From NCBI GenBank assembly GCA_030824075.1, contig JAVBYJ010000005.1, forward strand, positions 62,001 to 126,000: a DNA stretch of 64,000 nt, in the 5' to 3' direction. Below the pieces are notes generated by a model. That model was not told where the DNA came from. It did not search any database and saw nothing but the letters and a program-made list of their open reading frames with translations. The DNA comes from Geothrix sp. Lineage in GTDB: Bacteria > Acidobacteriota > Holophagae > Holophagales > Holophagaceae. The number at the start of each line of letters is the position of its first letter. Within the stretch, counting starts at the first letter, position 1. The translations under genes and the position numbers were made by a program. Positions 1,516-6,236 of the stretch are shown one piece after another.

Positions 1516-2362
1516 GGACAATCACCGGCTCCCTTGGGTGTTGGGCTTTCTCGTAACGGGTGATCTACTCCGTCGTTGTCCCGTTGAAATGTTCATTGTC
1601 GGCCTCGGCCTCGGCATCGGCACGGGTATGGTGGCGCCCTGTCCAGAGTGGTGTTTGGGCTGTTGGCTCTGGAAATCATGTAGAAGAATCGGGGATTGAC
1701 CCATCATTTCGAACGCTCCGCAAACCTTGGTTCCGTGTGGAAGGGCTGCAATCTTGGGGTCGGGATCGAATGGCAATGTCTCGGTCTGCTGTGAAAACGG
1801 ATGCAGGCGTGGCGTAGCGAATCGATTGAAAGCCGGGTTCTCATGGGTTTTGACCCTATCCCTGGGTCCCCTCGGCACATTTCATACCGAGTAATAACTA
1901 TTTTATTTTTATGATTTTATATAAACCAATTTTCAGATTCTATGAATGATTTCAATCAATTTGATGCGTCATCTCCTTCACTTCGAAAGATAGAAACATC
2001 CCTGGAGGGGGGAACGGATCTGGGCCCTCGAACTGAAGGAGTCGGTCATTCACCTTGATCGAATCATTCACCCGGCCAAAGCATGCGTGATGGCTAATTT
2101 TATGAAAAAAATTGACTTATAGAATGGCTCGAATGCTGCTCTGAAAGCGACTCTGGCCTCGACTAGGCGCGGCCAGGGCCATCGGAGAGGGTCACATGAA
2201 TCATCCGGACGAGGATGCCAAGGGCTATATGGAGGCACGTGACGGCTGCGCGACCAATGGATCACTGAAAACGCTGCGTTGCGGCCTGCCTCAGAAGACC
2301 GGGTAGGGAACTTGGCTGGCTAGGGATTAGACCTAGATCAATGGTACGACCGGAGGGATTTC
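1516..2362. other. Long intergenic, low-GC region with no firm gene
   Basis: This 847-bp stretch has unusually low GC for the window, especially about 1885-1975, which is mostly A and T. A minus-strand frame of 118 codons (1522-1878) is proline-rich, has no recognisable motif and is probably not a gene. A 36-codon frame at 2196 is listed separately. The AT-rich part could hold promoters for cheB or for the encapsulin operon, but no consensus pair stands out. TTGACT near 2112 lacks a clear -10 element at the right distance. Confidence 0.5.
2196..2306 (+). CDS. Possible small protein upstream of the encapsulin operon
   Basis: ATG at 2196 is preceded by GGAGAGGG at a spacing of about five bases, a better ribosome binding site than most shadows show. 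The frame codes for 36 residues, acidic at the start and with two cysteines (DGCATNGS and LRCG). It ends 56 bp before the superoxide dismutase start on the same strand. I recognise no family. It could be a leader peptide or a chance frame in a poorly conserved region. Confidence 0.25.
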   Translation: MNHPDEDAKGYMEARDGCATNGSLKTLRCGLPQKTG

Positions 2363-2974
2363 ATGACATACGAATCCAAGAATTACGATCACTTGAAGGG
2401 CGGGGTGATGAAGGGGTTCAGCGATAGCCAGCTGGAGCTGCACTTCACCCTCTACAAAGGCTACCTGGCCAAGCTCAACGAGATCGAGGAGAAGCTGGTT
2501 GCGGCGAATAACACCAAGCCCAACTATTCCTTCAACGAGTACAGCGAACTGAAGCGCCGGGAGGCCGTGGCCTTCAACGGCACCTTTCTCCATGAGCTCT
2601 ATTTTGAGAACCTGGGCGCCGATGCGGCCATCAGCTCCGCGCTTCAGAAGGCTCTGGAGGCCCAGGGCGGCAAGGACAAGATCCTGGCTGATCTCAAGGC
2701 GGCGGCCCTGGGCGGCCCCGGCTGGGGGTTGCTCACCCGCAATCGCCGGGATGGCAAGCTCCACACCTATTTCGTGGCCGAACATCACCTGGGCTTGCCC
2801 ATTGAACAGGATCTGCTGGTGGTCCTGGATAGCTGGGAGCACGCCTTCATGGTGGACTACGGCATCAAGCGCCCCGAGTACATCAATGCCTTCATGGAAA
2901 ACCTCAAGTGGAGTGAGGTGTCCAGGCGCTTTGGTGAGGCGGTTGCCAGTGACAGTGGGAGGTCACGTTCATGA
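2363..2974 (+). CDS. Superoxide dismutase, Fe/Mn family, first gene of encapsulin operon
   Basis: This 203-residue protein fits the Fe/Mn superoxide dismutase fold, which converts superoxide to oxygen and peroxide. The four metal ligands can be placed at His27 (LELHF), His77 (FLHELYFENL), Asp156 and His160 (DSWEHAF), with spacing close to E. coli SodB. The usual HHxxHH block is altered: Tyr31 replaces a normally conserved His. Gly73 stands where FeSOD has Gln, and His141 lies near the MnSOD Gln146 position by manual alignment, so metal choice cannot be called. GGAGGG precedes the ATG. The stop overlaps the next start (ATGA), showing translational coupling to EncFtn. No signal peptide and no encapsulin-targeting tail are visible. 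Divergence from housekeeping SODs suggests a dedicated role with the capsule. Confidence 0.9.
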   Translation: MTYESKNYDHLKGGVMKGFSDSQLELHFTLYKGYLAKLNEIEEKLVAANNTKPNYSFNEYSELKRREAVAFNGTFLHELYFENLGADAAISSALQKALEAQGGKDKILADLKAAALGGPGWGLLTRNRRDGKLHTYFVAEHHLGLPIEQDLLVVLDSWEHAFMVDYGIKRPEYINAFMENLKWSEVSRRFGEAVASDSGRSRS

Positions 2975-3309
2975 GCAGCGGTTACGTTGAAGCGGGGCTT
3001 TCAAGCGAGGCACTCAACATCCACCGGGCTCTCGCCAGCCTGCAGGAGGAGCTGGAAGCCATCGACTATTACCACCAGCGGGTGGACCTCTCCGACGACG
3101 CGTCCCTGAAGGCGATATTGGCCCACAACCGCGACGACGAAATGGAGCACGCGGCGATGCTGCTGGAATGGCTGCGCCGCACCATGCCTCAGTTCGACGT
3201 CCAGCTGAAGAAGTTCCTGTTCACTGCCGGTGACCCCACTGCCCTGGCGGCTGGGAGCGGGCTCCCAGCGGCAAACGGGAGCGGTTTGGGTTTGGGAAAC
3301 TTGAAATGA
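2971..3309 (+). CDS. Encapsulated ferritin-like protein (EncFtn) with encapsulin-targeting tail
   Basis: This 112-residue protein has the short two-helix EncFtn architecture. The first helix carries EELEAIDYY (Glu26, Glu27, Glu29, Tyr33, Tyr34) and the second carries HNRDDEMEH (Glu57, His60). These match the ferroxidase-centre and entry-site residues known from Rhodospirillum rubrum EncFtn (Glu32, Glu62, His65, Tyr39). EncFtn oxidises Fe2+ as a decamer but stores iron only inside an encapsulin shell. After residue 88 the chain becomes a Gly/Ala-rich linker ending in LGLGNLK, a typical cargo-loading peptide. It overlaps the SOD stop by 4 nt and lies directly before the shell gene. Confidence 0.95.
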   Translation: MSSGYVEAGLSSEALNIHRALASLQEELEAIDYYHQRVDLSDDASLKAILAHNRDDEMEHAAMLLEWLRRTMPQFDVQLKKFLFTAGDPTALAAGSGLPAANGSGLGLGNLK

Positions 3310-3338
3310 ATGGGGTGCTAAGCCCAGGAGACATGGCC

Positions 3339-4202
3339 ATGACAGACATACTAAGGCGCGATCTGGCACCCATCGTGGACGAGGCGTGGCAGGAGATCGA
3401 ACGGCAGAGTTCGCGCATCCTGAAAGGAAACCTCTCGGGGCGGAAACTGGTGGATTTTTGTGGCCCCCACGGCTGGCAGTTCGCCGCCGTGAACCTTGGA
3501 AGACTGGAAGTGGGGTCAGGCGATGCGCTGGACGGAGTGGCCTGGGGCATTCACAAGGTCCTCCCGCTCGTGGAGATCCGAGTGCCCTTCACCCTGCGTA
3601 TCTGGGAACTGGATGACGTTATGCGAGGTGCGAAGAACCCGGATCTCAGTGCCCTGACGGAGGCCGCGCGAAAGGTGGCGGTCTTCGAGGAGACGGCGAT
3701 CTATCGCGGTTTTGGCGGCGCCGGCATTCAGGGGATGCTGGCCGTCTCCAGCCATCCCCCGGTGCCTTTGAGCCCCGATCGAAGCCGACTCACGGAGTCC
3801 GTGGAACTTGCCTTGCTTGCCATCCAGGAGGCTGAGATCGGTGGGCCGTTTGCGCTGGTTTTGGGGACGGAGCCCTACAAGTGGCTGATGGTCGGAGACC
3901 CGAATGCCTACCCGCTGCGCAAGCGGATCCAAGCCATGTTCTCAGGCGGCATCCATTGGAGCCCGGTGCTAGAGGGAGGGGCCGTGATCTCGCTCCGGGG
4001 CGGGGATTTTGAGATGACCGTGGGGCAGGATCTGACCATCGGTTACAAGATGCATAACGCCCGGGATGTCGAGTTGTACTTTGCGGAATCCTTCACGTTC
4101 CGGGTGCTGGAACCCGCGGCGGCCGTGGAGTTGAAACGGCAGGATTCCTTGAGGTGGGATGATCGTGAGCCAGGGTCGGACGACCGGTTGCAAGATGCGT
4201 AG
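3339..4202 (+). CDS. Encapsulin nanocompartment shell protein
   Basis: This is a family 1 encapsulin (linocin/CFP29-type, HK97 fold) of 287 residues. The opening MTDILRRDLAPIVDEAW is characteristic, as are the GWQFAAVNLGRL segment and the C-terminal stretch IGYKMHNARDVELYF. The shell self-assembles into a hollow cage and binds the tail of the upstream EncFtn. ATG at 3339 is chosen because AGGAG (3326-3330) sits eight bases upstream and family members start here. An earlier in-frame ATG at 3306 overlaps the EncFtn stop as ATGA and would add 11 residues. The C-terminus is about 20 residues longer than usual and highly charged. Confidence 0.96.
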   Translation: MTDILRRDLAPIVDEAWQEIERQSSRILKGNLSGRKLVDFCGPHGWQFAAVNLGRLEVGSGDALDGVAWGIHKVLPLVEIRVPFTLRIWELDDVMRGAKNPDLSALTEAARKVAVFEETAIYRGFGGAGIQGMLAVSSHPPVPLSPDRSRLTESVELALLAIQEAEIGGPFALVLGTEPYKWLMVGDPNAYPLRKRIQAMFSGGIHWSPVLEGGAVISLRGGDFEMTVGQDLTIGYKMHNARDVELYFAESFTFRVLEPAAAVELKRQDSLRWDDREPGSDDRLQDA

Positions 4203-4289
4203 CAGCTGGGATGAGACGGTCCACAAACCAGGCCTTGGAGCCCTGTCCTTCCGGCTCCTGCTTTGTTCGAATGACTGTGTGGGGGAGCT

Positions 4290-5165: not shown

Positions 5166-6236
5166 ATGCGTCCACGCCTGTTCTGGGGCGGCGTTGCCCT
5201 CACCGTGGCCTTGGCGGGCTTCGGGTTCGCTGTCTCCACCACCCACCGGCCCGCCGATGCGGCCGCCCCGCCCACCCGAGAGGACCAGGTGACTGATTCC
5301 AAGAAACCCCGCCCGGACGAGTTGAAGCAGAAGCTCACGCCCATGCAGTTCCATGTGACCCAGGAGGCGGGCACGGAGCCACCCTTCCGCAACGAGTACT
5401 GGAACGAGCACCGGGACGGTGTCTATGTCGACATCGTCAGCGGAAAGCCCCTGTTCTCATCCAAGGACAAGTTCGATTCCGGTTGCGGCTGGCCCAGCTT
5501 CACGAAGCCCCTGGCGGGGGAGGATGTCGTCGAGAAGCGGGACGTCAGCGTCGGCATGATCCGCACCGAGGTAAGGTCCAAGGCTGCGGATTCCCACTTG
5601 GGTCACGTGTTCGAGGACGGCCCGAAGGACCAGGGCGGCCTCCGGTACTGCATCAACAGCGCCTCCCTGCGGTTCGTCCCCGTGGCGGATCTGGAGAAGG
5701 AGGGGTTGGGTTCCTTCCTGCCGCTGTTCGGAAAGGCCGCACCCGCCCCGAAGCCGGCACCCAAGGAGGAGATCGCCACCCTGGCCGGTGGCTGTTTCTG
5801 GGGCATGGAAGACCTGATCCGCAAGCAACCCGGCGTGACCGCCATCGAGGTGGGCTATACCGGCGGGACGGTCGCCAACGCCACCTACAAGAATCATGAA
5901 GGCCACGCCGAGGCTGTGCAGATCCGCTTCGATCCGTCGAAAACCACCTACGAAGCGCTGCTGAGGTTCTTCTTCCGCATGCACGACCCCACCACCCTGA
6001 ACCGCCAGGGCAACGATCTGGGCACCTCCTACCGCAGTGCGATCTTCTTCCACACGGAGGCGCAGCGGCAGACGGCCGAACGAGTGAAGGCCGAGGTGGA
6101 TGCCAGCGGCAAGTGGACACGTCCGATCGTCACCGAGATCACGGCGGCCGGTCCCTGGTGGAAGGCCGAGGAATACCACCAGGACTACCTGATCAAGAAC
6201 CCCGGCGGGTACACCTGCCACTACGTGCGGGACTGA
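5166..6236 (+). CDS. Exported bifunctional methionine sulfoxide reductase, MsrB-MsrA fusion
   Basis: This 356-residue protein begins with a hydrophobic signal or anchor (residues 5-25). The MsrB domain (about 52-178) follows, with resolving Cys107 in SGCGWPSF and catalytic Cys162 in RYCINSAS. A proline/alanine linker (190-200) leads to the MsrA domain (about 201-356), with catalytic Cys210 in GGCFWG and recycling Cys351 near the C-terminus. Together they reduce R- and S-methionine sulfoxide in periplasmic proteins using a thiol donor. The zinc-binding CxxC pairs of many MsrB proteins are absent: the segment before PLFSS reads VDIVSG. The order is B then A, the reverse of the Neisseria PilB fusion. 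AGGAGG (5154-5159) precedes the ATG. Confidence 0.95.

What the first reader, a model, noticed from the sequence alone, without database searches (positions are those of the whole stretch)
2363..4202. Three-gene operon: divergent superoxide dismutase + EncFtn + encapsulin shell
EncFtn (with a C-terminal cargo tail LGLGNLK) and encapsulin are a known iron-storage nanocompartment pair. The unusual part is a Fe/Mn SOD as the first gene, with ATGA overlap into encFtn. EncFtn ferroxidase chemistry generates reactive oxygen, so a dedicated SOD is a plausible partner. The SOD keeps all four metal ligands (His27, His77, Asp156, His160) but has lost parts of the HHxxHH block, and it lacks a targeting tail. 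If it is co-packaged by another mechanism or acts at the shell surface, this would be a new kind of encapsulin system.
Basis: partly seen in the sequence, partly recalled or inferred. Interest (0 to 1): 0.82.

Follow-up and report, generated by a model that had tools for sequence, protein, structure and literature searches.

The report
Iron-storage nanocompartment operon with superoxide dismutase
A bacterium of the Geothrix group keeps a second superoxide-removing enzyme in one operon with its protein-shelled iron store; the arrangement recurs across its family and seems not to have been described, but nothing in the sequence shows that the enzyme goes inside the shell.

Summary
SOD (2363-2974), EncFtn (2971-3309, tail LGLGNLK) and a family 1 encapsulin (start more likely 3339 than 3306, to 4202) form one operon in a Geothrix-type Holophagaceae (Acidobacteriota) genome. 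The SOD-encFtn pair recurs in 11 further family genomes, nearly always with the shell gene and mostly in unrelated neighbourhoods. Second SOD copies occur only in genomes that carry EncFtn or encapsulin, and the operon SODs form one lineage or nearly so, under purifying selection. The linkage is real. The 'lost' HHxxHH residues are shared with non-encapsulin relatives and match the published definition of SodFM4, a known active SOD subfamily. The SOD has no recognisable targeting peptide; its variable tail overlaps the encFtn ribosome-binding region. Natural variants show a loose partnership: four genomes have EncFtn and encapsulin without adjacent SOD, one has an in-frame gutted SOD, and the nearest relative keeps SOD and EncFtn but lacks the shell gene. 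A sigma54-like box precedes most of these operons. Best reading: a co-regulated cytosolic accessory SOD that protects, or feeds peroxide to, the iron-loading nanocompartment. New operon variant of a known system; co-packaging is untested.

The parts
2125..2140 (+). Candidate sigma54 (-24/-12) promoter TGGCTCGAATGCTGCT, 238 nt upstream of sod, next to an AT-rich stretch
   Evidence: Score 18.2 of 20.2, shuffle P 0.004. Similar TGG-N10-GC boxes lie 50-90 nt upstream of 10 other operons. rpoN is in the genome. In the window the box is further upstream than in the others, so its role there is inferred.
2363..2974 (+). sod: SodFM4-type iron/manganese superoxide dismutase, 203 aa, second copy in the genome
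   Evidence: Pfam PF02777; best solved relative 1coj (Aquifex) by sequence and by fold; model pLDDT 87.5; own-genome paralog 79% identical at G000:C1.
2936..2974 (+). Variable C-terminal tail of SOD (about EAVASDSGRSRS) that overlaps the encFtn Shine-Dalgarno GGGAGG and the ATGA start
   Evidence: Tails of 12 operon SODs share no motif and no LxxGxL-like peptide; junction sequences.
2971..3309 (+). encFtn: encapsulated ferritin-like cargo, 112 aa
   Evidence: PF22277 1.8e-36; TIGR04535 120.8 bits, just under its cut-off of 125.
3286..3306 (+). Cargo-loading peptide LGLGNLK at the EncFtn C-terminus
   Evidence: GLGLGNLK-type end conserved in nearly all Holophagaceae EncFtn of this operon.
3339..4202 (+). 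encapsulin shell protein, family 1 (ORF opens at 3306; start at 3339 is more likely)
   Evidence: PF04454 6e-78; NF041155 275.5 bits, cut-off 100; start by comparison with homologs.

Best explanation
The locus is a family 1 EncFtn-encapsulin iron store with a dedicated accessory SOD as first gene. Shown: the genes form a conserved unit, the SOD is a paralog of the family's housekeeping SodFM4 kept under purifying selection, and it lacks a known packaging signal. Inferred: all three are transcribed together, in most relatives from a sigma54-type promoter, when iron and oxygen stress meet. Soluble SOD (probably an Fe-preferring tetramer, as SodFM4s go) removes superoxide formed as Fe(II) is oxidised around and in the shell. 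That would prevent superoxide from re-reducing and freeing stored ferric iron, and it yields H2O2 that EncFtn may use as an oxidant. The SOD is helpful but dispensable, so it most likely acts in the cytosol near the shell and is not obligatory cargo.
For: SOD directly upstream of encFtn in 12 genomes across several genera, in mostly unrelated neighbourhoods. A second full-length SodFM4 copy is present in 12 of 17 EncFtn genomes and 0 of 60 others. dN/dS about 0.12, same as the shell gene and close to the housekeeping SOD. Operon SODs form one lineage or nearly so with a shared Gln26-to-Leu change next to ligand His27, 11 of 12 versus 0 of 50. All four ligands, Tyr34 and the EHH motif are invariant. 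Val at X(D-2) usually goes with Fe preference (PMC10172142). No targeting peptide. A sigma54-like box at a set place upstream in most operons, with rpoN present. SOD absent or gutted while EncFtn and shell are kept in five genomes.
Against: No expression, binding or activity data. Superoxide production by EncFtn has not been shown; a review states that even its preferred oxidant, O2 or H2O2, is unknown (PMC7762939). Four genomes do without the operon SOD, and one keeps SOD and EncFtn without the shell gene, so the partnership is loose. The housekeeping SOD should already clear cytosolic superoxide, which leaves the need for a second one unexplained.
Confidence: 0.6

Rival explanations
1. The SOD is a genuine second cargo, packaged without a classical peptide, for instance by binding EncFtn or being caught while translated beside it; the shell then holds a superoxide-quenching ferroxidase.
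For: Tight gene order and overlap with encFtn, which suit co-translational assembly. A lineage-specific Gln26-to-Leu change could mark a new contact.
Against: No conserved terminal extension or motif at either end. EncFtn and shell persist without an intact adjacent SOD in five genomes. The nearest relative keeps SOD and EncFtn without the shell.
Confidence: 0.15
2. The SOD simply belongs to the same stress response: operon membership gives co-expression in oxygen or iron stress but there is no functional or physical contact with the compartment.
For: Bacteria commonly group stress genes (own knowledge); an MsrBA repair gene lies close downstream in the window; the SOD is absent from several of these operons.
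Against: The gene order is kept while flanking genes change, which favours more than loose co-regulation.
Confidence: 0.2
3. Historical accident: a duplicated SOD landed upstream of encFtn once and is carried along, for instance because encFtn translation is coupled to an upstream reading frame.
For: Single or near-single origin. In G008 the SOD has lost about 122 codons in frame but its start, end and junction to encFtn persist, as if the upstream reading frame itself matters.
Against: Full-length SOD under strong purifying selection with intact active site in 12 operons.
Confidence: 0.05

Closest known systems
EncFtn (Flp) family 1 encapsulin systems (Rhodospirillum rubrum, Haliangium ochraceum, Thermotoga maritima)
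   Same: EncFtn ferroxidase with C-terminal loading peptide directly upstream of a family 1 HK97-fold shell gene.
   Different: These are described as cargo plus shell; the main text of the 2021 survey does not mention superoxide (PMC8346489). Here a SOD is the first gene.
SodFM4 superoxide dismutases (Aquifex pyrophilus Fe-SOD 1coj as nearest structure; Woesearchaeota SodFM4)
   Same: Best sequence and fold match 1coj, loss of the last His of HXXXHH, His in the C-terminal EHH motif, Val at X(D-2).
   Different: Relatives outside Holophagaceae fetched here have no encapsulin nearby; the operon copies carry a variable tail and, in 11 of 12, Leu26.
DyP-peroxidase encapsulins
   Same: Shell system tied to oxidative stress, with accessory genes in some operons (PMC8346489).
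   Different: Different cargo; there the peroxidase is the packaged enzyme, whereas this SOD has no packaging signal.

Membership tests
Family 1 encapsulin with EncFtn cargo | Linocin_M18/HK97-fold shell gene of family 1 | tested here: met
   PF04454 6e-78, NF041155 275.5 bits over cut-off 100
Family 1 encapsulin with EncFtn cargo | EncFtn cargo encoded directly upstream, with C-terminal loading peptide | tested here: met
   PF22277 124.2 bits; conserved GLGLGNLK ends
Family 1 encapsulin with EncFtn cargo | Shell assembly and cargo encapsulation | not testable with these tools
   Needs expression and purification
SodFM4 superoxide dismutase | Four metal ligands (three His, one Asp) | tested here: met
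   His27, His77, Asp156, His160 invariant
SodFM4 superoxide dismutase | Loss of the C-terminal His of the HXXXHH motif | tested here: met
   HF[TG]LYKGY in operon and housekeeping copies; definition from PMC10172142
SodFM4 superoxide dismutase | Placement in the published SodFM4 clade | not tested
   The published tree was not rebuilt; assignment rests on motifs and on 1coj as nearest structure
SodFM4 superoxide dismutase | Homotetramer, SOD activity | not testable with these tools
   Monomer model only
Encapsulin cargo (for the SOD) | Terminal targeting peptide | tested here: not met
   No conserved motif at the C-terminus; N-terminus like that of the housekeeping paralog

The most novel reading that the evidence does not exclude
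A two-enzyme encapsulin in which SOD is co-packaged or held at the shell without a targeting peptide and couples superoxide removal to ferroxidation by handing H2O2 to EncFtn, under sigma54 control.
Probability: 0.12. Interest if true: 0.82.

Novelty: new variant of a known kind. Interest (0 to 1): 0.52.

Why it matters
It links iron storage in a protein shell with superoxide removal at the level of one operon, and gives a genetic handle on an open question: which oxidant EncFtn uses, O2 or H2O2 (PMC7762939). The family offers ready-made comparisons: operons with SOD, without SOD, with a gutted SOD, and without the shell. Geothrix are iron-reducing anaerobes that meet high Fe(II) and bursts of oxygen (own knowledge), which is where such a coupling would pay.

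Tried and rejected
Divergent HHxxHH as a shell adaptation: rejected, it is shared by all relatives. Targeting peptide on the SOD: none found. Chance gene adjacency: rejected by conservation against changing neighbours. Rfam element in the operon: no match. Extending the survey to other phyla failed because only genomes with a G handle can be a centre; 396 Acidobacteriota genomes were sampled, and of the EncFtn loci fetched outside the family none shows a SOD within about 1.5 kb. The tree of EncFtn plus shell did not resolve whether SOD-less operons are ancestral or losses; in it two of the 17 family rows had a wrongly short shell sequence, one an interrupted one, and one has no shell gene. The 2017 encapsulin survey by Giessen and Silver is not held, and the supplements of the 2021 survey, where minor operons are listed, could not be read, so earlier notice of a SOD there cannot be excluded.

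Full report
What is there. The window lies in a Geothrix-type Holophagaceae genome of 2.98 Mb (closest named records are Geothrix). At 2363-4202 three genes read in one direction: a 203-aa iron/manganese SOD, a 112-aa EncFtn ending in LGLGNLK, and a family 1 encapsulin. The SOD stop overlaps the EncFtn start as ATGA; the same 4-base overlap is found in at least five relatives. The encapsulin ORF opens at 3306, but homologs begin at (M)xDILRR after an AGGAGA-like site, so 3339 is the likelier start.

Conservation of the unit. A scan of public genomes and of 77 genomes of the family found SOD directly upstream of encFtn in 12 genomes, 11 of them with the shell gene behind. Flanking genes differ between most of the loci compared; only G. 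limicola and one MAG clearly share upstream neighbours. A second full-length SOD of this type occurs in 12 of 17 genomes with EncFtn and in none of 60 without; one of the latter, G028, has broken pieces of both an operon-like SOD and an encapsulin. In these genomes a housekeeping paralog sits elsewhere; in the window's genome it is 79% identical.

Relationship of the SODs. On a tree of 81 SODs, 11 of 12 operon copies form one starred clade; the twelfth (L007) branches just outside, and seven non-operon SODs of other Holophagaceae lie between. A single clade for all 12 is not rejected (p-AU 0.17). Eleven operon copies share Leu26, next to ligand His27, where all 50 non-operon family members compared have Gln; the exception is again L007. 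Median dN/dS is about 0.12, as for the shell gene (0.12) and the housekeeping SOD (0.13).

What kind of SOD. The best relative of known structure is the Fe-SOD of Aquifex pyrophilus, by sequence (1e-36) and by fold of the model (pLDDT 87.5). A published survey separates SodFM4 from SodFM3 by loss of the last His in HXXXHH, gives most of them a C-terminal His at the water site, and reports that Val or Thr at X(D-2) usually goes with Fe preference; SodFM3/4 are tetramers (PMC10172142). Here Val154 and the EHH motif fit. The enzyme is therefore probably active and Fe-preferring; this was not measured, and the published tree was not rebuilt.

Packaging. EncFtn tails are conserved as GLGLGNLK; SOD tails are not conserved, and they overlap the encFtn Shine-Dalgarno. 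The SOD N-terminus resembles the housekeeping copy. No known encapsulation signal is present. Packaging through another contact remains possible.

Natural variants. G055, G059, G069 and G070 have EncFtn and shell without an adjacent SOD. In G008 the SOD is reduced in frame to 75 aa (about residues 1-26 joined to 149 onwards), while EncFtn and shell are intact. In G033, the nearest relative, window bases 3310-4225 are absent and no encapsulin is found in the genome, while SOD and EncFtn remain; its contig is palindromic, so an assembly artefact is possible. The parts can be separated, which argues against obligatory co-assembly.

Regulation. A TGG-N10-GC box (CGG in two) resembling the sigma54 -24/-12 element lies 73-90 nt upstream of sod in eight loci, including the gutted one, and 50-54 nt upstream of encFtn in two SOD-less ones; with two weak hits counted (the window and its nearest relative), 12 of 17 operons score against 0.9 expected, and 2 of 51 housekeeping sod genes do. 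Threshold and interval were chosen after seeing the data and the loci are related, so the P values are too optimistic. In the window the good box is at 2125-2140. RpoN is encoded. No paper in the library joins encapsulin with the term sigma54.

Mechanism. Most likely the SOD is a co-expressed soluble partner that removes superoxide formed as Fe(II) meets oxygen. Superoxide can reductively release iron from ferritin (own knowledge; reviews on reductive mobilisation were found but not read), so its removal would protect the ferric core; the H2O2 made could serve EncFtn, whose preferred oxidant is unknown (PMC7762939). These steps are inference.

Novelty. The main text of the 2021 encapsulin survey does not mention superoxide, and library searches, judged by titles, abstracts and counts, found no paper describing a SOD in an encapsulin operon. 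This is a new operon variant of a known system.

Noticed in passing
L032:6486-7240; also L024, L025, L029: The housekeeping sod of several Geothrix is followed by one to three tandem duplications of about 255-260 bp that carry the last 30 or so codons of sod plus spacer, up to 99% identical. No Rfam family matches.
   Followed up: partly
L003:6947-6955 against window 3309-4226: The closest relative (about 92.5% DNA identity here) lacks the encapsulin gene by a clean gap but keeps sod and encFtn; its contig is palindromic.
   Followed up: partly
L089:1247-1471: In-frame gutted SOD of 75 aa in front of intact encFtn and encapsulin.
   Followed up: partly
window 5166-6236: Bifunctional MsrB-MsrA methionine sulfoxide reductase with a hydrophobic N-terminus, two genes downstream of the encapsulin; among the operon loci compared it is found only in the nearest relative.
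   Followed up: no
L133-L137, L139, L142, L144-L147: Other Acidobacteriota carry EncFtn-like proteins without an evident loading peptide and without an encapsulin match in the fetched flanks, some with an N-terminal hydrophobic segment.
   Followed up: no
G069 (L101) and G057 (L097): A second, truncated encFtn-encapsulin remnant in G069 and an apparent frameshift in the G057 encapsulin.
   Followed up: no
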